A DNA stretch of 64,000 bases. Source: Spirochaetaceae bacterium 4572_59. Lineage in GTDB: Bacteria; Spirochaetota; Spirochaetia; DSM-2461. The notes under the pieces are model-generated. The model had not been told where the DNA came from. It made no database searches and saw only the letters and a list, made by a program, of their open reading frames with translations. Where the stretch lies: positions 1-64,000 of the forward strand of contig NBMC01000002.1 in NCBI GenBank assembly GCA_002084805.1, given 5' to 3'. Below, one piece after another: positions 26,960 through 64,000 of this stretch. Each line of letters opens with the position of its first letter. Within the stretch, counting starts at the first letter, position 1. Position numbers and translations under genes: made by a program.

Positions 26960-28145
26960 TTTTATCCCTTTTGCCCTTCCCTCTATCGAAAAAGAAGAGG
27001 AAGAGGCCGTTCTCCGTGTTCTCAGGAGCGGATGGCTCACAACCGGAAAAGAAACCCTTGCGTTTGAGAAAGAGTTTGCTTCCTACACGGGAGCCAGCCA
27101 TGCCCTGGCGGTAAATTCTGCAACGGCCGGACTGCACCTGACAATGGAGGCCATGGGAATCGGTCCGGGGGATGTGGTAATCGTTCCGACCTATACCTTT
27201 ACAGCTACTGCCGAGGTTATCCGCTATTGCGGAGCCGACCCCTGGTTTGTGGATATGGGGGAAACAAGCTGGAACATGGATCCTCAAAAAGTATCAGATA
27301 CCATTGCTTCTCTAAAAAAGAAGGGAAGATCCCTCAAGGGAATAATGCCTGTTCATATAGGCGGTGATCCCGAATTTTTAAAAGACCTTCATTCACTGGC
27401 TGTCCAGAATGAACTTTTTCTGGTAGAAGATGCCGCCCACTGCTTTCCCGTAGAGACAGAACAGGGATATGTGGGAACCTATACGGATGCAGGAGTCTAC
27501 TCTTTCTATGCCAACAAAACCATAACGACCGGAGAGGGCGGAATGATTGCTGTCAAAAACCCGGAACTGGCCAGACGGATGGAAATAATGCGTCTTCACG
27601 GTATTGACCGTCCCGCCTGGGACCGTTACACAAGCCAAAAGGCATCCTGGGAGTACGATATCGTAGCGCCCGGGTTTAAATATAATATGACAGATATTTC
27701 CGCCGCTATCGGGCGGGTTCAGCTGTCAAAAGCTAAAGATTTGATGCATAAGAGACAGCGTCTGGTCGCATCCTACCTGGAAGCCCTTTCAGACCTTGAT
27801 TTTCTGGAGCTACCTCTCTGGAAAAATGAGCATGCCTGGCATCTTTTTCTGATAAAAATCAAAACAGAAAAACTCTCTATTGGCCGAAACCGCTTTATCG
27901 AAGAACTGCAGGAAGCAGGAATCGGAACATCTGTCCACTACAAACCGCTTCATATGATGAGTTATTATAAAGAACGATATAATCTGTCAAACGGAAATTT
28001 TCCACTTGCAGAAAATGCCTTTCAGCGGGTGATAAGTCTGCCTCTTTTCCCGGACATGAGCGAAGAACAGCTACAGCGTGTATGCCATACAATAAAATCT
28101 ATCGGTGCAGTTCACCGCATAAGGGAGACCGCCGGCTGTGGATGA
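26943..28145 (+). CDS. DegT/DnrJ/EryC1 sugar aminotransferase
   Basis: This PLP enzyme transfers an amino group onto keto-sugar nucleotides. It shows SGWLTTGKE, ALAVNSATAGLHL, EDAAHCFPV and the Schiff-base lysine segment YSFYANKTITTGEGGM. At ~400 residues it is of family length. The start is the ATG at 26943, inside the end of the dehydratase gene (17-bp overlap). With that dehydratase it should yield a UDP-4-amino-4,6-dideoxy sugar, as in bacillosamine-type pathways. No acetyl- or glycosyltransferase follows; the next genes are Mo-hydroxylase-like. Confidence 0.88.
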   Translation: MNQNTDFIPFALPSIEKEEEEAVLRVLRSGWLTTGKETLAFEKEFASYTGASHALAVNSATAGLHLTMEAMGIGPGDVVIVPTYTFTATAEVIRYCGADPWFVDMGETSWNMDPQKVSDTIASLKKKGRSLKGIMPVHIGGDPEFLKDLHSLAVQNELFLVEDAAHCFPVETEQGYVGTYTDAGVYSFYANKTITTGEGGMIAVKNPELARRMEIMRLHGIDRPAWDRYTSQKASWEYDIVAPGFKYNMTDISAAIGRVQLSKAKDLMHKRQRLVASYLEALSDLDFLELPLWKNEHAWHLFLIKIKTEKLSIGRNRFIEELQEAGIGTSVHYKPLHMMSYYKERYNLSNGNFPLAENAFQRVISLPLFPDMSEEQLQRVCHTIKSIGAVHRIRETAGCG

Positions 28146-30186
28146 GGATAAATTCAGAAACAGACTAGCAGGAGGAATTCGCTTTCCCGAGGATATGACC
28201 AGCAAAAAAATGGTTTATGCGATTCTGATCCGTTCTCCCCGTTACCAGGGAATACTGGAAGAGGTGGATGTTCCGAAACTACCTGAGAATATGCTTTTTA
28301 TGAGAGCGAAAGATCTTCCCGGTAAAAATCTAATGCCCCTTCCCGACTGCGCCCTGCCTCTTTTGGTGGAAGATGAAGTTCTCTACCCCGGACAGCCTTT
28401 AGGTCTTTTAACGGGAGCTGATCCTGAGATTCTAAACAAGATAGGCAGTCAGATACGCTGCCGAATCCGTAAGACCCCCCCATTCCCTCCCGCTGCCATA
28501 AATGATCCTCGTTCTACCGCTATTATAAAAGAAATCAAAAAGGGCGATCTGGACCGGGGAATGAACAAGGCCGAACAAATACTGAAGGGCGAATACAAAA
28601 TGATAATGCCCGAGGTTCCCAGTTATCCCCGTAACAACATATTCTGTACAAAAGAAGGGGGGCGCTACATACTCCATCTGCATACCCAGTGGCCCTCACT
28701 TGTCCGGAAGCTCTGCGCTCTGGCAGCCAATATCAGCCGTAAACAGGTTGAACTCCATTTCAATACAGCCGGCCGAACCTGGGACAGCCATATCTGGCAA
28801 TCCGCCGTGCCGGCTGCTCTAACAGTAGCCGCCGCTTCCATCCTGCGCCAGCCTGTACGTCTAATAGAAGAAGAGAACATTGCCATGAGCTTTGTACCCA
28901 GAGAACTCAATATTCACTATACCGCAGGTCTGGACCATCAGGGACGTCTGACCGCCCTGATGGCTGATTTAAGTATTGATGCGGGAGCCTATGGTTGTTT
29001 TGCCTCGGAAGTTCTGACAAGGCTCTGTCTTTCTTCCGCCGGATTCTACCAGTGCCGCAACATACGGATCAGAGGAAAAGCATACCAGACCAATACGCCC
29101 CCCTGGTTTCCCATGGCCGGATGGGGTTTACCTCAGGGATTTTTCGGAGTAGAAATGTTGGCAAACCATCTGGCTGAGGAATCTGGTACAGATCCTGCAA
29201 TCTGGCGGAATCTCAATATCGTTGAAAAAGGGAACCTCTATCCCACATCCGGCCAGGTAAGACAGCGCCTCCCCTTGCCGGAGATGGTAGATGATATTTG
29301 CAGGAAATCAGATTTTACCCGCAAACACGCAGCAGGACGGCAGGTTCGTCAGAATGAAAGAGAACTGGATCTTCTTCCTACAGGATACAGCGGTATCGGT
29401 ATGGCTGTCAGCTTTCAGGGGAACGAGTTTTTATCACGGAACAGAGTTCTCACCGCCTCTAGCGTTACGACGACCCTTCATAAAGAGGGAAATCTAGAAA
29501 TTATTCTGAATGCGGTCCCTGCCACTCCAAGCCTACTGGCCTTATGGAAGAAACGGATATCCAAAAGACTGTCTATTCCGGAAGAACAGATTTCCTTTAT
29601 TCTGGATAAGCCTGACGATCAGGCTTTCAGTGGCCCCTCAACTCTTTCCAGAAGCAGTACAATTCTCACAAGACTAATCGATCAGAGCTGTGATCTCATA
29701 CAGAAAAAGCGCTTTAGAGAGGCTCTTCCCATTACAGAAACAGGAAGCTTCAGACGACGGACAAAAACCGATTGGGATGAGGAGAGCCTGATAGGAACTC
29801 CCTTTGGAACCCCGTCCTTTGCGGCCGCTGTAGTTGATGTACAGCTGGAGACTGCGACCATGGAACTGCGGGTACCAAAGATTTGGCTCTCCCTTAACTG
29901 CGGTATCATCCTAGATAAGAGCTCAGCCAGATCTTTTATTGAGGCGGAAGTCCGGCTGGCCCTCTGCCAATGCCTGAAAAAGCAGGCTATCAAGCCCAGC
30001 ATTTTCCCGGAGCTGCATATTGAGTTTAATGAAAATGAATCTAAAAACCAGAGAATCGGTGGATTGGAAGGACTGGTACTGGGAGCCGTCCCGGCGGCCT
30101 TTGCTCAAGCTGTCTCCCTAGCCTCAGGACTTCAGATCAATTCCCTCCCCCTTGAATCGGGAGATTTATTAAGGGGAGTCAATTAA
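28138..30186 (+). CDS. degenerate xanthine dehydrogenase-like molybdopterin subunit
   Basis: Start GTG at 28138, overlapping the aminotransferase stop. The protein follows the xanthine dehydrogenase large subunit: an N-terminal a/b-hammerhead (FRNRLAGGIRFPEDMTSKKMVYAILIRSPR), then the Mo-cofactor domain. At 682 residues it is shorter than usual (about 750 or more). Cofactor motifs are altered: the GGxFGGK loop reads TAGRTWDS, and the catalytic region expected as GxGE is GGLEG, which keeps a Glu. GPSTLSRSST near 500 matches the GPSxASR region. It is probably a divergent hydroxylase or one that has lost activity. Two small subunits follow at once. Confidence 0.7.
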   Translation: MDEDKFRNRLAGGIRFPEDMTSKKMVYAILIRSPRYQGILEEVDVPKLPENMLFMRAKDLPGKNLMPLPDCALPLLVEDEVLYPGQPLGLLTGADPEILNKIGSQIRCRIRKTPPFPPAAINDPRSTAIIKEIKKGDLDRGMNKAEQILKGEYKMIMPEVPSYPRNNIFCTKEGGRYILHLHTQWPSLVRKLCALAANISRKQVELHFNTAGRTWDSHIWQSAVPAALTVAAASILRQPVRLIEEENIAMSFVPRELNIHYTAGLDHQGRLTALMADLSIDAGAYGCFASEVLTRLCLSSAGFYQCRNIRIRGKAYQTNTPPWFPMAGWGLPQGFFGVEMLANHLAEESGTDPAIWRNLNIVEKGNLYPTSGQVRQRLPLPEMVDDICRKSDFTRKHAAGRQVRQNERELDLLPTGYSGIGMAVSFQGNEFLSRNRVLTASSVTTTLHKEGNLEIILNAVPATPSLLALWKKRISKRLSIPEEQISFILDKPDDQAFSGPSTLSRSSTILTRLIDQSCDLIQKKRFREALPITETGSFRRRTKTDWDEESLIGTPFGTPSFAAAVVDVQLETATMELRVPKIWLSLNCGIILDKSSARSFIEAEVRLALCQCLKKQAIKPSIFPELHIEFNENESKNQRIGGLEGLVLGAVPAAFAQAVSLASGLQINSLPLESGDLLRGVN

Positions 30187-30189
30187 AAA

Positions 30190-30666
30190 ATGCTTATCGA
30201 ATTCGTATTGAATGATGAACCTACTTCAGTTGAAGTACCTGCCTATAAAAGGTTAGCCGATGTTCTAAGAGAAGGTTTTAATTTAACAGGACTCCGTTCA
30301 GCCTGTGGAAAGGGTTACTGCGGACTCTGCACGGTAGTTCTGAATGAAGAACTGGTCTATTCCTGCATGATCCCCGTATTTCAGATCAGAGGAAAATCCG
30401 TTCAGACCATAGAGGGCTACGCTGAAACAGAGGGATTTAACGATGTTTTTGAGGGATTCAAAGAGGCAGGGGTTCATCTTTGTGATTACTGCGCCCCCAC
30501 CCGTACGCTGACCACAGGGATACTGCTGGATAGATATGTCCGTCCCGATGCCAGACAGATTGAAGAGATACTTAGTTCTGTTAAATGCAACTGTACCCCC
30601 TATGAAACTCTGAAAAAAGGGATTCTTCTAACATCACAGATCCGGCAGAAAAGGCTGAAAAGTTGA
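30190..30666 (+). CDS. 2Fe-2S subunit of Mo-hydroxylase-like complex
   Basis: 158 residues with the plant-ferredoxin-type cluster motif CGKGYCGLC...C near 40-61 and the second, helical-domain cluster LCDYCAPT with CNC about 35 residues later. All eight cysteine ligands appear present. The residues around the second cluster are changed: the family's QCGxCTPG is LCDYCAPT, and CRCTGY is CNCTPY. It lies 3 bp after the large subunit and overlaps the FAD subunit start by TTGA. It would carry electrons from Mo to FAD. Confidence 0.82.
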   Translation: MLIEFVLNDEPTSVEVPAYKRLADVLREGFNLTGLRSACGKGYCGLCTVVLNEELVYSCMIPVFQIRGKSVQTIEGYAETEGFNDVFEGFKEAGVHLCDYCAPTRTLTTGILLDRYVRPDARQIEEILSSVKCNCTPYETLKKGILLTSQIRQKRLKS

Positions 30667-31547
30667 AACAGCCCCCCTATCATATCAGTATTCCACAAAA
30701 CCTGATGGATCTGCTCAGCCTTTACAGGAAAAATCCGGCATCCCTTCTGATGGCGGGGGGAACCCATCTTCTGAATCATACCCTCAATCGAGAGGGAGAG
30801 CACTATTCCATTTTATCTCTGACACAATTGGAGGAACTGCAGAAAATTTCCCGCACAGACCGCTATGCTGAAGCAGGCTGCTGTGTAACCATCAACCGCA
30901 TGATTGAAACGGCCTATATTTTCCGCTCCCCCCTTCTGCAGGATACCCTATGCCAGATGGGTCCCTACCCGATCAGAAACAGCGCGACAGTAGGGGGAAA
31001 TCTCTGTATTCCAGGCCGGAGAAAAGACCTTTTTCCGGTTTTGCAGCTTCTGGATACACGGGTGGAAATCCGCTATGTCAAACCCAAGCGAAATAAACGG
31101 ATGTCCATGAAATCCCGCTGGATTCATATCAATAACCTTCTCAGCCATGACGGAGAAATAAACCTGGCCGAGGGAGAAATGATCACAAGAGTTAGAATTC
31201 CCTACTATGACGGCAACTTTACCTTTCATAGAAAGGTAAATATCAAAGATGATTTTTACCTTAGCGTCAACTGCCTTGCCACCATTGAAAAAGGTGTTCT
31301 TTCCGATATCCGCCTCATTTTTACCAATGAGGAAAAGCTTATAATCCGCAACAGGGATATAGAAGCTAATCTTCTGGGACGCCGTTTCCCCCTGGGGAAA
31401 AAAGATCACGATCAGCTAATGGGAAATCTGTCCCACTTCTATATGCCCAATGAAAATCCCTATGAAACCTACCTCATAAGGAACCTGTTCCGACAGCTTC
31501 TGGAGTCCCTGGCAGATCCGCCTGAAAATCTTCAGGGAACTTGGTAG
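30663..31547 (+). CDS. FAD-binding subunit of Mo-hydroxylase-like complex
   Basis: 294 residues of the xanthine dehydrogenase medium-subunit type: LLMAGGTHLLN (FAD pyrophosphate loop, usually AGGTDL), PIRNSATVGGNLC (usually QIRNxATxGGN) and a C-terminal CO-dehydrogenase-flavoprotein-like domain. The start is TTG, coupled to the upstream stop by TTGA, with AAAGG 8 nt before. The Asp of AGGTD is replaced by His. With the two preceding genes it completes a three-subunit complex; its substrate is unknown and no cofactor-maturation genes are nearby. Confidence 0.8.
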   Translation: MKQPPYHISIPQNLMDLLSLYRKNPASLLMAGGTHLLNHTLNREGEHYSILSLTQLEELQKISRTDRYAEAGCCVTINRMIETAYIFRSPLLQDTLCQMGPYPIRNSATVGGNLCIPGRRKDLFPVLQLLDTRVEIRYVKPKRNKRMSMKSRWIHINNLLSHDGEINLAEGEMITRVRIPYYDGNFTFHRKVNIKDDFYLSVNCLATIEKGVLSDIRLIFTNEEKLIIRNRDIEANLLGRRFPLGKKDHDQLMGNLSHFYMPNENPYETYLIRNLFRQLLESLADPPENLQGTW

Positions 31548-59415: not shown

Positions 59416-59470
59416 TTACAAAAAATTGGGTACTTACAAAAATATTGTAGTTTTTACAAAAATATTAGTA
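59416..59470 (+). repeat. three TTACAAAAATATT direct repeats upstream of thrC
   Basis: Three copies of a 13-14 bp AT-rich motif begin at 59416 (TTACAAAAAATTGG), 59434 (TTACAAAAATATTGT) and 59454 (TTACAAAAATATTAG), spaced 18 and 20 bp. The third forms an imperfect 18-bp palindrome TTAC-n10-GTAA. The layout suits binding of a regulator on one DNA face upstream of thrC, or intrinsic curvature. Confidence 0.45.
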
Positions 59471-59477
59471 ATAATCC

Positions 59478-59505
59478 TTTTCATATGGCTGTAACCTGCT
59501 ACAAT
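59478..59505 (+). promoter_or_regulatory. candidate thrC promoter
   Basis: TTTTCA (59478-59483), 16 bp and TACAAT (59500-59505) lie just downstream of the repeat array and 61 bp before the thrC ATG. Confidence 0.4.
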
Positions 59506-59566
59506 GATTCTAAGAATATCATATTCCTGACTTCAATTGAACAGTTATTCAGGAAAAGGATTACTA

Positions 59567-60751
59567 ATGAAATTCAGATACCAATGCAGCGAATGCGGAG
59601 CCTTTTTCGATTTGGATCCCGCGCTGAACACATGTCCGGATTGCCGGAAGAATCAGAAAGAGAATGAACCATTAAGAGGTGTACTTGAAGTCCGACTGGA
59701 AGGAGACCTGCCATCCTCCGGAAATTTATCTTATAATATGCTCCCGGTTCCTCGTGAGTTTTTCCCTTCCCTTCCTGATGTAACAGGCAAACTATGGCAA
59801 CCTGCCAGACTACGTAAAGAAATGGAACTTCCCCGATTATTTATTATGAATGACGGATCCAACCCGACAGGTTCCTTTAAAGACAGAGCCTCAGTTCTTG
59901 TCTCAGCCTATGCCAAACAGTGTGGAATTGACAGTATAGTACTGGCATCCACAGGGAATGCCGGATCTTCCATGTCCGGTATCGGAGCAGCTGCAGATCA
60001 AAAGATTGTTCTTTTCCTGCCGGAAACTGCTCCTCCTGCCAAACTCATTCAGGCCCTCCAGTACAATGCGACCCTTTATAAGGTAGCCGGAAATTATGAT
60101 ATGGCCTATGAGCTCTCTCTGGAGTATTCCGAACAGTACGGCGGAATGAACCGGAATACCGCATGGAATCCCATGACCATGGAAGGGAAAAAGACTATTT
60201 CCCTGGATATTTTTAGCCAACTGGGAGAAAAGGCACCGGATAGAGTCATTGTTCCGACGGGTGACGCCTGCATCCTGGGGGGAGTCTATAAGGGATTCAA
60301 GGATTTGCTTCAGTATGGACTGATCAAAAAAATGCCTAAAATAACTGCGGTTCAGGCGGAAGGCAGCTCGGCCCTCTACAGAGCATGGCAAAAAGGAAGC
60401 TTCGACCTGCAATCCAGCAGAACTGTGGCCGATTCCATCTCCGTGGATATTCCCCGGAACGGTTACACCGCCCTCAGATATCTGAAGAAATTCAACGGGG
60501 ATGTCATTACCGTTACGGACGAACAGATTATTGAAGCACAAGCCCATCTCTCCTGTGGATCGGGATTATTCACAGAGCCAGCCGGTGCGGCAGCATGGGC
60601 AGGGCTCCGAAAGATGCACCATACTATTGATAAGGACGAAACTGTTGTGGTACTTGCTACAGGCAGCGGTCTTAAGGATACGGCAACAGCTCTCAAGGGA
60701 GTAAAAATGCCGGGAAGATCTATACATAATATTCAAGACATAAGGGGATAA
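59567..60751 (+). CDS. thrC: threonine synthase-like PLP enzyme
   Basis: Fold-type-II PLP enzyme with an N-terminal zinc ribbon (CSECG...CPDC, residues ~7-25). The Schiff-base lysine lies in NPTGSFKDRASV and the phosphate site is ASTGNAGSS. Threonine synthase makes threonine from O-phosphohomoserine. The ATG at 59567 has AAGGA 6 nt upstream; the earlier track start has none. Another PLP gene begins 2 bp later and then ygfK, so a catabolic role in that operon is an alternative. Confidence 0.8.
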   Translation: MKFRYQCSECGAFFDLDPALNTCPDCRKNQKENEPLRGVLEVRLEGDLPSSGNLSYNMLPVPREFFPSLPDVTGKLWQPARLRKEMELPRLFIMNDGSNPTGSFKDRASVLVSAYAKQCGIDSIVLASTGNAGSSMSGIGAAADQKIVLFLPETAPPAKLIQALQYNATLYKVAGNYDMAYELSLEYSEQYGGMNRNTAWNPMTMEGKKTISLDIFSQLGEKAPDRVIVPTGDACILGGVYKGFKDLLQYGLIKKMPKITAVQAEGSSALYRAWQKGSFDLQSSRTVADSISVDIPRNGYTALRYLKKFNGDVITVTDEQIIEAQAHLSCGSGLFTEPAGAAAWAGLRKMHHTIDKDETVVVLATGSGLKDTATALKGVKMPGRSIHNIQDIRG

Positions 60752-60753
60752 GA

Positions 60754-62214
60754 ATGATTGATTTTACTGTGAACAAAGACATGCAAAAACAGAATGCAGC
60801 CTACTGTAAAGAAAAAGGCATAAAGCTGCCTACCTATGAGATGATGAAAAATCCTGAACTCATTCCGGATGAAATCAAGGAGAAACTGAGCAAAACCGGT
60901 CTGTGGGATATCGACCCTGTCAATCTTTTCAGAATCACCTGGAAAAATCAGCCCAAAGAGTCCGGAGGTCAGTTCGGTAAGGTTAACCATATTGTTCTTC
61001 CACCTGAACTAACAGGAACAAAGGCAAAAATCGTTGTTCTGGTTGGTAAATGGTTCCCCACAGGAGCTCATAAAGTCGGTGCAACCTATGGTTGTCTGGC
61101 GCCCCGTCTAACCACAGGTCAGTTTGACCCCAAAAAAACAAAGGCCGTATGGCCGTCTACTGGTAATTACTGCCGTGGTGGAGCCTATATTTCATCTCTG
61201 CTGGCATGTGAAGCTATCGCCATCCTGCCCGAAGAAATGTCTCAAGAAAGATTTGAATGGTTGAAACAGGTCGCAGGTGAAGTTATTGCCACACCCGGTT
61301 GCGAATCCAATGTAAAAGAGATTTTTGACAAATGCTGGGAACTGAGAGAATCCGGACAAGATCTGAAAATTTTCAATCAGTTTGATGAAATGGGTAATCC
61401 TCTGTGGCATTACAATGTAACAGGGGCCGCCATCGAAGAAACTCTTGGTTACTACATGAAAGAGGGCGATAAGATGGTCGGTTATATCTCTTCTTCAGGA
61501 TCAGGTGGAACACTGGCTGCAGGATACTACCTGAAAACAAAATTCCCCCAGATGAAGATCAATGTAGCAGAGGCTCTTCAGTGCCCCACCCTTCTCCAGA
61601 ATGGATTTGGTGGACACAGAATCGAAGGTATCGGAGACAAACACGTCCCATGGGTTCATGACTGTAAGGAAACCGACTATATCACCGCCATTGATGATGA
61701 ACACTCCATGAGACTGATCCGTATGTTCAATGAGAAAATCGGACGCGAAACTCTGAAAAAAGCCGGGGTTTCTTCAGAACTGGTAGAGCAGCTTGATCTT
61801 CTTGGTATTTCCAGTGTTGCCAATGTACTGGCCGCTATCAAATTTGCCAAATACAACGAACTCACAGAAAATGATTATGTTGTGACCATCGCAACCGATT
61901 CTATGGAGCTTTATGGTTCTCGAGTAGAGGAACTTTCAAAAGAGAAAGGCCCATACACTCAGGCTAATGCTGAAAGAGATATGGAACTCCTTCTCGGTCA
62001 GACTATCGATCATATTAAAGAACTGACCTACTATGACAAAAAAGCCGTTCACAACCTGAAATACTTCACATGGATCGAACAGCAGGGACGGGAACTGTCC
62101 GAATTGAACGAACAGTGGTACGATCATGATAATTATTGGAACAGCACCATGGAACAGGCTGGAGAAATCGATGAAATCATCAGCGAATTCAATGAGATGA
62201 TTGATAAAGCATAA
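60754..62214 (+). CDS. fold-type-II PLP-dependent enzyme of uncertain substrate
   Basis: 486 residues. The lysine site is FPTGAHKVGATYG, followed by a phosphate-site segment STGNYCRGGAYISSLL and SSSGSGGTLAAGYYLK. It belongs with cysteine synthase/threonine dehydratase-like enzymes but is longer, with a ~55-residue N-terminal and a C-terminal helical extension. Substrate not recognised. It lies 2 bp after the ThrC-like gene and 21 bp before ygfK. A ygeX-type diaminopropionate lyase accompanies ygfK in E. coli, so an amine-eliminating role is plausible but unproven. Confidence 0.7.
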   Translation: MIDFTVNKDMQKQNAAYCKEKGIKLPTYEMMKNPELIPDEIKEKLSKTGLWDIDPVNLFRITWKNQPKESGGQFGKVNHIVLPPELTGTKAKIVVLVGKWFPTGAHKVGATYGCLAPRLTTGQFDPKKTKAVWPSTGNYCRGGAYISSLLACEAIAILPEEMSQERFEWLKQVAGEVIATPGCESNVKEIFDKCWELRESGQDLKIFNQFDEMGNPLWHYNVTGAAIEETLGYYMKEGDKMVGYISSSGSGGTLAAGYYLKTKFPQMKINVAEALQCPTLLQNGFGGHRIEGIGDKHVPWVHDCKETDYITAIDDEHSMRLIRMFNEKIGRETLKKAGVSSELVEQLDLLGISSVANVLAAIKFAKYNELTENDYVVTIATDSMELYGSRVEELSKEKGPYTQANAERDMELLLGQTIDHIKELTYYDKKAVHNLKYFTWIEQQGRELSELNEQWYDHDNYWNSTMEQAGEIDEIISEFNEMIDKA

Positions 62215-62235
62215 TTTAATAAGAGGAAGAAATTT

Positions 62236-64000
62236 ATGAGCGATTTAATGAGGTCAGTCTCCTTTAAGGAACTGGTAAAAAGAATCTTCTCGGAATACAA
62301 CAAAGATAAAACAATCTTCAGTTTTTCCCCTTCCCTGAATGGGCCTGTAAAGGTCCCTCACGGGGAGATGAAGCTTTTTGGAGAGAGCGCAGCCTCGCCT
62401 GTCGGTCCGGCGGCAGGCCCCCATACACAGCTTGCTCAGAACATTATAAGCTCCTGGCTAGCAGGAGCCAGATTCTTTGAACTGAAAACCGTACAGATAA
62501 TGGATACGCTGGAAATTGAAAAACCCTGTATCGACGCTGAAGATGAAGGGTTTAACACAGAGTGGTCCACGGAATATACCCTGGATAAAGCCTATGATGA
62601 ATATCTGAAGGGCTGGTTTCTCTGTCATATATTGGAAGTGCTTTTCGAAGATCATACGGAAAAACAGTTTATCTTCAATATGAGTATCGGTTATGATCTG
62701 GAGGGGATCAAGAATCCCCGTATGAACGAATTTATAATGCGTCTTGTGGACAGCTCCGGAGAAAAGAACTTTTCTCTCTACCGAGATGAACTACGTAAAT
62801 TGGCGGATGATCCGGATTTCCTCAAGGGTACAGGTCTGGAAGACAAAAAGGGGAGACTTACTGCTCTTGCCGATAGAATCTCCCCCAGAATCTGCCGTTC
62901 AGTGACTCTGAGTACCATGCACGGCTGTCCTCCTGATGAGATCGAAAAAATTGCCGAATATCTACTGCGTGAAAAAAAGCTTAATACCTTTGTCAAACTG
63001 AATCCCACCCTTTTAACCTTTCAGGGTGTAAGGTCCACACTGGATAAGCTGGGATTCGATTATGTAGGATTAAAACAGGAAAGTTTTGATCACGACCTGC
63101 AGTATCCCGATGCAGTGAGCATGCTTAAAAGATTAAGAAAACTTGCAGCTGGGGAAAACCTGACCTTCGGTGTAAAACTGACCAATACTCTGGGATCGGT
63201 CAATAACAAAGGCAATCTTCCCGGAGAAGAAATGTATATGTCCGGGAGAGCCCTCTTCCCCATATCAGTTCAGCTGGCTCTGAAGCTGAGCAGGGAGTTT
63301 GAAGGCAGCCTGCCTATCTCTTTTTCCGGTGGGGCAAGCAGTCTGAATATGGAAGACCTTCTAAATACGGGAATTAGACCTGTCACAATGGCAACTGATA
63401 TGCTCAAACCTGGTGGCTACGGCCGAATGGCTCGGGCTGTTGAAAAAAGTTATACCGTCAAAACCTGGAACAGGGATGGCATTGATATTAAAGCTCTGGA
63501 GAGACTGGTCGAAAAAGCACTCATTTCTCCCGAGTATACCAAGGATTGGCGTGGGACTGATTCTATCAGCACAGAAGAGCCTCTGCCGCTCTACGACTGT
63601 GCGATAGCGCCCTGTAAAACCGCCTGTGCCATTCATCAGGATATTCCTGAATACATCAGACTTGTAGGGCAGGGCCGCTATGGAGAAGCTCTTGATGTAA
63701 TATACAACAAGAACCCCCTGCCCTTTATCACCGGATGGATTTGTGATCACAAATGTCAGTACAACTGTACCCGTCTAGATTATGATGGCAGCGTTAAGAT
63801 TCGGGATATGAAGAAAATCGCTGCCCGTCAAGGCTGGAGCGAATATATCAAAGCTTTCAAGAAACCTGCCGAAGGTACAGGAGCCAAAGTGGCTGTTATC
63901 GGTGCGGGACCTGCCGGATTGGCAGCAGCATACTTTCTAAGACGGGGCGGAGCTTCCGTTTCTGTTTTTGAAAAAGAAGACAGCCCCGGCGGTGTTATCA
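62236..64000 (+). CDS. ygfK: YgfK-like oxidoreductase (partial, runs off the window)
   Basis: Not in the ORF track because it has no stop before the edge; about 588 codons are open from the ATG at 62236 (AGAGGAAG upstream). The N-terminal dihydroorotate-dehydrogenase-like domain (ASPVGPAAGPHTQLAQNII, AGARFFELKTVQ) is followed by a GltD-type Fe-S segment. Its cysteines are in CAIAPCKTACAIHQDIPEYI and CDHKCQYNC. The FAD site VAVIGAGPAGLAAAYFL begins near the edge. This layout is that of YgfK, annotated as a putative selenate reductase subunit. YgfK genes occur in anaerobic purine/uric-acid catabolic clusters. Confidence 0.85.
   Translation, partial: MSDLMRSVSFKELVKRIFSEYNKDKTIFSFSPSLNGPVKVPHGEMKLFGESAASPVGPAAGPHTQLAQNIISSWLAGARFFELKTVQIMDTLEIEKPCIDAEDEGFNTEWSTEYTLDKAYDEYLKGWFLCHILEVLFEDHTEKQFIFNMSIGYDLEGIKNPRMNEFIMRLVDSSGEKNFSLYRDELRKLADDPDFLKGTGLEDKKGRLTALADRISPRICRSVTLSTMHGCPPDEIEKIAEYLLREKKLNTFVKLNPTLLTFQGVRSTLDKLGFDYVGLKQESFDHDLQYPDAVSMLKRLRKLAAGENLTFGVKLTNTLGSVNNKGNLPGEEMYMSGRALFPISVQLALKLSREFEGSLPISFSGGASSLNMEDLLNTGIRPVTMATDMLKPGGYGRMARAVEKSYTVKTWNRDGIDIKALERLVEKALISPEYTKDWRGTDSISTEEPLPLYDCAIAPCKTACAIHQDIPEYIRLVGQGRYGEALDVIYNKNPLPFITGWICDHKCQYNCTRLDYDGSVKIRDMKKIAARQGWSEYIKAFKKPAEGTGAKVAVIGAGPAGLAAAYFLRRGGASVSVFEKEDSPGGVI

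What the first reader, a model, noticed from the sequence alone, without database searches (positions are those of the whole stretch)
59567..64000. Two adjacent fold-type-II PLP enzymes leading into YgfK
A ThrC-like enzyme, a 486-residue PLP enzyme of unknown substrate and a YgfK oxidoreductase are spaced by 2 and 21 bp. YgfK is tied to anaerobic purine/uric-acid breakdown, where a PLP diaminopropionate lyase (YgeX) acts. Here two different PLP enzymes take that place. The operon may be a variant nitrogen-scavenging pathway using ferredoxin or NADPH electrons.
Basis: partly seen in the sequence, partly recalled or inferred. Interest (0 to 1): 0.6.

Follow-up and report, generated by a model that had tools for sequence, protein, structure and literature searches.

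The report
Enzyme pair ending bacterial uric-acid breakdown
Two neighbouring vitamin-B6-dependent enzymes lie at the head of a uric-acid-degradation operon in a spirochaete, and the same pair recurs in many bacterial phyla, often where the known last enzyme of that pathway (YgeX) is missing, so it is probably an alternative, still uncharacterised end of anaerobic uric-acid breakdown.

Summary
PLP1 looks like a threonine synthase but keeps neither the phosphate-binding Arg nor the Thr seen in true ThrC, and a separate thrC lies elsewhere. PLP2 is a 486-residue CysK/CBS-like enzyme with no curated family. The pair is conserved. Among 296 genomes sampled from the phylum, PLP1 and PLP2 are each in 27 of 53 ssnA+ genomes and 1 of 243 others. 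Of the 53 ssnA+ genomes, 52 have YgeX or PLP1, and 13 have the pair without YgeX. In 30 PLP2+ genomes picked from other phyla, 29 have PLP1 and only 2 have YgeX. This genome also keeps an unlinked YgeX, so here the pair supplements or duplicates it. Best reading: the pair converts 2,3-diaminopropionate, the pathway's last intermediate. Preferred chemistry (inferred only): PLP2 hydrolyses diaminopropionate to serine, because its invariant Asp295 aligns with Asp232 of Fusobacterium cysteine hydroxyl-lyase Fn1055, and PLP1 deaminates serine to pyruvate. The papers I could read mention neither enzyme; surveys scoring YgeX by Pfam PALP would count both as YgeX.

The parts
59567..60751 (+). PLP1: threonine-synthase-like fold-type-II PLP enzyme with N-terminal CxxC...CxxC zinc-ribbon-like segment (394 aa)
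60754..62214 (+). PLP2: 486-aa CysK/CBS-like fold-type-II PLP enzyme; predicted PLP lysine K107, conserved WPSTGN(Y/F)CRG and HR(I/L)EGIGDKH(V/I)PW motifs
62236..64000 (+). ygfK (reductase that dearomatises yanthine in the uric-acid pathway), 5' part; continues to contig position 65343
59469..59566 (+). 5' leader of PLP1: inverted repeat 59469-59482/59553-59566 that would cover the Shine-Dalgarno; weak support

Best explanation
PLP1 and PLP2 are a conserved two-enzyme module of the reductive (anaerobic) uric-acid degradation pathway. They act at its end, on the C3 amino acid 2,3-diaminopropionate (DAP) left when both ureido groups have been removed, and do the job that YgeX does in E. coli (DAP + H2O -> pyruvate + 2 NH3). 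Shown by computation: operon membership, conservation, near-obligate pairing, co-occurrence with ssnA, and presence in genomes without YgeX. Inferred: the substrate. Preferred but only inferred chemistry (about 0.3): PLP2 forms the aminoacrylate Schiff base from DAP and adds water, activated by Asp295, to give serine + NH3. PLP1, a ThrC/serine-dehydratase-fold enzyme without the phosphate site, then deaminates serine (or DAP itself) to pyruvate. In this genome an unlinked YgeX is also present, so here the module runs beside it.
For: PLP1-PLP2-ygfK-ssnA-ygeY are co-directional with gaps of about 2, 21, 13 and 60-80 bp; arcC-ygeW are nearby. Phylum sample of 296 genomes: PLP2 in 27 of 53 ssnA+ genomes and 1 of 243 ssnA- genomes; PLP1 the same numbers; PLP1 and PLP2 together in 26 of 28 carriers of each; all Fisher p below 1e-21, phylogeny not corrected. 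Of the 53 ssnA+ genomes, 52 have YgeX or PLP1: 13 pair only, 12 pair plus YgeX, 23 YgeX only, 2 PLP2 plus YgeX, 2 PLP1 only, 1 neither. The two PLP1-only genomes have PLP1 near a contig end. In 8 of the 13 pair-only genomes YgeY and YgeW are both present, so DAP would be made and needs a sink. In 30 PLP2+ genomes from other phyla, 29 have PLP1 (at least 338 bits), 2 have YgeX and 24 have SsnA at 328 bits or more. Across 99 PLP2 loci, 69 carry at least one pathway gene and YgeX is in only 3. PLP1 and PLP2 distances correlate (Mantel r 0.68, 0 of 2000 permutations). The ThrC Arg160 and Thr88 equivalents were not found in any PLP1 copy in which the motifs could be read. PLP2 Asp295 aligns with the Fn1055 Asp whose D232N mutant traps aminoacrylate; Fn1055 makes serine from cysteine + H2O (PMC9865163).
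Against: No biochemistry. This genome and 11 other sampled genomes keep both YgeX and the pair, so the pair may do something additional. Two related genomes have PLP2 with a YgeX-like enzyme and no PLP1. The loop with Asp295 is the least confident part of the model (residues 289-295, pLDDT below 50). The one-step YgeX reaction does not need two enzymes. Co-occurrence counts are inflated by shared ancestry, and the 30 genomes outside the phylum were picked by hand. In 30 of 99 loci no pathway gene lies within reach (many contigs are short).
Confidence: 0.66

Rival explanations
1. PLP1 alone is the YgeX substitute (a DAP ammonia-lyase), and PLP2 does a different job on the same metabolite, for example a DAP racemase or an isomer-specific lyase, because upstream enzymes leave D-configured DAP whereas E. 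coli YgeX takes both isomers.
For: Every ssnA+ genome without YgeX but one has PLP1, while PLP2-only genomes (G008, G021) carry a YgeX-like enzyme instead of PLP1. Fold type II includes serine racemase and dehydratases, close to the PLP1 model. YgeX is reported active on both isomers (PMC12507026), and the stereochemistry is an open question (PMC12990295).
Against: Pairing is almost obligate (29 of 30 in other phyla). PLP2 belongs to the CysK/CBS clade of beta-replacement enzymes rather than racemases.
Confidence: 0.25
2. The pair acts one step earlier, on 3-ureidoalanine (albizziin) or its isomer, eliminating urea or the ureido group.
For: CysK-like enzymes handle beta-substituted alanines (established knowledge); 5 of the 13 pair-only genomes lack the YgeY and YgeW families.
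Against: Those five carry other carbamoyltransferases, several of them linked to the pair and to arcC, which would strip ureido groups another way. The other eight, and this operon, keep YgeY and YgeW.
Confidence: 0.1
3. The pair belongs to a separate ureido- or carbamoyl-amino-acid pathway that shares carbamoyltransferase, arcC and YgeY with uricolysis; its presence in uric-acid operons is secondary.
For: Some loci have only carbamoyltransferase, ArcC, YgeY or TRAP transporters around the pair, without ssnA nearby (L081, L098, L111, L113, L142).
Against: Genome-wide, 27 of 28 PLP2+ genomes in the phylum and 24 of 30 outside also have a strong ssnA, often on another contig.
Confidence: 0.1
4. 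Ordinary housekeeping: PLP1 is a threonine synthase and PLP2 a cysteine synthase that sit by chance before ygfK.
For: PLP1 passes the TIGR00260 thrC cut-off (172.6 vs 167.1 bits).
Against: The genome has its own thrC and cysK. The phosphate-site residues are not kept. PLP2 reaches no cysK cut-off (108 vs 351 bits). Both are tied to ssnA.
Confidence: 0.03

Closest known systems
Reductive uric-acid degradation cluster of E. coli / C. difficile / C. sporogenes (Li 2025, PMC12507026; Liu 2025, cited in PMC12990295)
   Same: YgfK, SsnA, YgeY, YgeW and carbamate kinase are linked here; a D-hydantoinase and an XDH-type enzyme are in the genome
   Different: Two extra PLP enzymes head the operon; YgeX is unlinked here and absent in many relatives; neither PLP enzyme is mentioned in the papers I could read
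YgeX, diaminopropionate ammonia-lyase (TIGR03528)
   Same: Fold-type-II PLP superfamily; same place in the gene neighbourhood
   Different: PLP1 scores only about 24 bits against TIGR03528; the TDGN and QDT Asp residues of YgeX are Thr and Asn in PLP1; PLP2 has STGN
Threonine synthase (ThrC, short type: PDB 1UIM, 6CGQ, 2D1F)
   Same: Closest solved fold and sequence to PLP1 (about 31% identity)
   Different: PLP1 keeps neither the Arg (NPxR) nor the Thr (STGNT) of ThrC: the Arg position is Thr, Leu or Met and the Thr is Ala in the copies scanned
Fn1055, cysteine hydroxyl-lyase of Fusobacterium nucleatum (PDB 5B53/5B55)
   Same: PLP2 aligns with it, including the Asp in the GI(G/S)D motif; CysK/CBS fold
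   Different: PLP2 is 150 residues longer, about 20% identical, and carries KH after the Asp; substrate unknown
CysK / cystathionine beta-synthase
   Same: Best fold matches of PLP2 (TM about 0.8 by target length)
   Different: N- and C-terminal extensions; far below curated cysteine-synthase cut-offs; GIGDKH replaces GIGAGF

Membership tests
Reductive uric-acid degradation cluster | ygfK, ssnA, ygeY, ygeW and carbamate kinase above curated cut-offs | tested here: met
Reductive uric-acid degradation cluster | Uric-acid reductase (XDH type) and D-hydantoinase in the genome | tested here: met
   TIGR02033 hydantoinase on contig 27; XDH operon on contig 5, 45-51% identical to XdhA genes linked to PLP2 elsewhere; both unlinked here, substrate not shown
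Reductive uric-acid degradation cluster | Growth on or conversion of uric acid | not testable with these tools
   needs culture or enzymes
Diaminopropionate ammonia-lyase YgeX (TIGR03528) | Model score above 532 bits | tested here: not met
   PLP1 about 24 bits, PLP2 not listed; the genome's separate YgeX scores 599
Diaminopropionate ammonia-lyase YgeX (TIGR03528) | Both active-site Asp residues (TDGN, QDT) | tested here: not met
   Thr and Asn in PLP1; role of the Asp residues from memory
Threonine synthase | TIGR00260 score above cut-off | tested here: met
   172.6 vs 167.1 bits
Threonine synthase | Phosphate-binding Arg/Thr of the phosphohomoserine site | tested here: not met
   Arg not at that position in the PLP1 copies scanned; Thr replaced by Ala; role from memory of T. 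thermophilus ThrC
Cysteine synthase / CBS | Curated model cut-offs (cysK 351, cystathionine beta-synthase 510 bits) | tested here: not met
   PLP2 108 and 81 bits
Cysteine synthase / CBS | Fold type II core with PLP lysine and STGN loop | tested here: met

The most novel reading that the evidence does not exclude
PLP2 founds a new enzyme family, a diaminopropionate hydroxyl-lyase (DAP + H2O -> serine + NH3), and PLP1 a partner serine deaminase. Together they make a two-step route from uric acid to serine and pyruvate, used across many phyla and so far hidden under the names YgeX and threonine synthase.
Probability: 0.28. Interest if true: 0.75.

Novelty: new variant of a known kind. Interest (0 to 1): 0.6.

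Why it matters
The anaerobic uric-acid pathway was solved only in 2025 and matters for gout and for nitrogen recycling in animal guts. In a large share of the organisms that carry its marker gene ssnA, the textbook last enzyme YgeX is missing and an unnamed enzyme pair is present. Li et al. scored YgeX in gene neighbourhoods by the PALP Pfam domain, which also catches PLP1 and PLP2, so the gap would have been hidden. Assigning the pair would complete the pathway in Spirochaetota, Chloroflexota, Desulfobacterota and others, and would correct systematic misnaming of PLP1 as threonine synthase. Loci in a Blautia and a Ruminococcus genome (L135, L156) suggest relevance to animal gut bacteria.

Tried and rejected
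ThrC housekeeping for PLP1: rejected (separate thrC; phosphate-site residues not kept). CysK for PLP2: rejected (far below cut-offs; separate cysK). PLP1 or PLP2 as YgeX itself: rejected (TIGR03528 score, catalytic Asp residues). Strict replacement of YgeX in this genome: rejected (YgeX on contig 61). Absence of PLP2 in G018 and G036 as a real exception: not accepted, because PLP1 lies near a contig end in both. Tree of PLP1 vs ThrC vs YgeX: ThrC and YgeX each form one group, but rooting on the distant YgeX leaves PLP1 monophyly undecided. No RNA family in the leader. No paper in the library describes the pair: searches on ygfK/ygeX, ygeW/ygeY/ssnA, DAP ammonia-lyase and threonine synthase; in the passages found, Haft and Self 2008 and PMC4016543 do not mention it. 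Liu 2023, Liu 2025 and Kasahara 2023 are not held, so a mention there cannot be excluded. Three of the YgeX loci (L159, L161, L162) gave a different longest frame in the alignment and were ignored.

Full report
Observation. The window is the first 64 kb of a 152,735-bp contig. To the right lie ssnA (contig 65357-66685), ygeY (66763-67968), a LacI regulator with an ABC sugar transporter that looks unrelated, a diguanylate cyclase, a YheO-type regulator, arcC and ygeW. YgfK, SsnA, YgeY, ArcC and YgeW all pass curated cut-offs. Elsewhere the genome has a D-hydantoinase (contig 27) and an XDH operon (contig 5) 45-51% identical to XdhA genes that sit beside PLP2 in relatives.

Known pathway. This is the gene set of the reductive uric-acid pathway: uric acid -> yanthine (XdhD) -> dihydro-yanthine (YgfK) -> ureidomethyl-hydantoin (SsnA) -> 2,3-diureidopropionate (HyuA) -> ureido-amino acid (YgeW) -> 2,3-diaminopropionate (YgeY) -> pyruvate (YgeX) (PMC12507026, PMC12990295). 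Li et al. noted ssnA in Spirochaetota, but in their neighbourhood survey YgeX was defined by Pfam PF00291, which PLP1 and PLP2 also match.

The other PLP enzymes of this genome. CysK, OrtB, TrpB, a true ThrC beside aspartokinase and a true YgeX (599 bits) are all present elsewhere. The YgeX sits with ridA and a sigma-54 activator on contig 61. So PLP1 is not the cell's only threonine synthase candidate, and YgeX is not missing here. CysK, OrtB, TrpB, ridA and the activator are named from their sequences as I read them; only ThrC and YgeX were run against curated models.

What the two proteins are. PLP1 is closest to ThrC in sequence and predicted fold and has an N-terminal CxxC/CxxC segment in the window protein. 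The ThrC motif STGNT reads STGNA in PLP1, and NPxR reads NPx(T/L/M), in the copies where the motif was found. From memory these ThrC residues hold the substrate phosphate. PLP2 is predicted with good confidence (mean pLDDT 89, pTM 0.91) as a CysK/CBS fold with N- and C-terminal extensions. Its motif HR(I/L)EGIGDKH(V/I)PW is found in at least 97 of 101 copies; in the other four the pattern hit an earlier GIG. The Asp of that motif aligns with Fn1055 chain residue 236. Fn1055 is 336 residues and the crystallised chain 340, so this is residue 232 if the tag is N-terminal. The D232N mutant chain also scores lower than the wild type in the aligned region. The D232N crystal traps the aminoacrylate intermediate (title), and Fn1055 turns cysteine + water into serine + H2S (PMC9865163). 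This is the basis for the proposed DAP -> serine step; it is an inference, and residues 289-295, which include the Asp, are the least confident part of the model.

Distribution. In 296 genomes sampled from the phylum (Spirochaetota by the titles of matching records such as L090 and L095), PLP2 is in 28, PLP1 in 28 (a clear score gap, 400 vs 298 bits), both in 26, ssnA in 53. PLP2 and PLP1 each occur in 27 of 53 ssnA+ genomes and 1 of 243 ssnA- genomes. YgeX and PLP1 are complementary within ssnA+ genomes (Fisher p 5e-5, no phylogenetic correction), and 52 of 53 have one or the other. One of the YgeX calls (G171) rests on a fragment at a contig end. Thirteen have the pair without YgeX; eight of those have both YgeY and YgeW, while five (G003, G016, G025, G054, G068) have neither family and carry other carbamoyltransferases instead. 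In 30 of those genomes that I picked for contig size and diversity, PLP1 is in 29, YgeX in 2, and SsnA at 328 bits or more in 24. In 99 loci, 67 hold both genes, 43 of these immediately adjacent and in both orders; carbamoyltransferase, XdhA, ArcC, YgfK, SsnA, hydantoinase and YgeY are the commonest partners; YgeX is near only 3. PLP1 and PLP2 divergence is correlated, partly as expected from shared species history.

Interpretation. A pair this tightly tied to ssnA, found where YgeX is missing and beside the enzymes that make DAP, most likely consumes DAP. Why two enzymes? The favoured idea is sequential (PLP2: DAP to serine; PLP1: serine to pyruvate). The main rival is that PLP1 is the lyase and PLP2 handles stereochemistry. 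The two genomes with PLP2, a YgeX-like enzyme and no PLP1 fit the rival slightly better; the Fn1055-type Asp fits the favoured idea better. Neither is shown.

Limits. No expression or enzyme data; co-occurrence is inflated by kinship; the three key papers on gut uricolysis other than Li 2025 were not readable here; several genomes are incomplete.

Noticed in passing
L053 8196-11792, L055 10780-12663, L096, L113, L121, L125 (around PLP2): Clusters with two carbamoyltransferases plus arcC; five pair-only genomes lack the YgeY and YgeW families. If both ureido groups left as carbamoyl phosphate, two ATP per uric acid could be made instead of one.
   Followed up: partly
window 59462-59590: PLP1 leader can fold into a long stem (59469-59482 with 59553-59566) that hides the Shine-Dalgarno; z-score only -1.7. 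Two TTACAAAAATATT copies 20 bp apart lie just upstream.
   Followed up: partly
L004 1381-2592 / L075 12971-16564 (contig 61): Unlinked YgeX beside ridA and a sigma-54 activator: a separate diaminopropionate-use locus.
   Followed up: partly
window 59567-60751: PLP1 just passes the NCBIfam thrC cut-off (172.6 vs 167.1), so automatic annotation will call it threonine synthase.
   Followed up: yes
window 28138-31547: Three-gene molybdenum-hydroxylase-like operon (MoCo, 2Fe-2S and FAD subunits), only about 25% identical to the XdhA linked with PLP2; substrate unknown.
   Followed up: partly
L101 10359-10976 and 13 other loci, near PLP2 in Chloroflexota: Conserved protein of about 190-205 aa (cluster c12), no Pfam match, close to PLP2 and hydantoinase.
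   Followed up: no
L074 524-1642, L171 9224-10330: Divergent YgeX-like enzymes (347-370 bits against TIGR03528) in two genomes that have PLP2 but no PLP1.
   Followed up: partly
L008 9240-14003: LacI regulator and ABC sugar transporter inserted between ygeY and arcC-ygeW.
   Followed up: no
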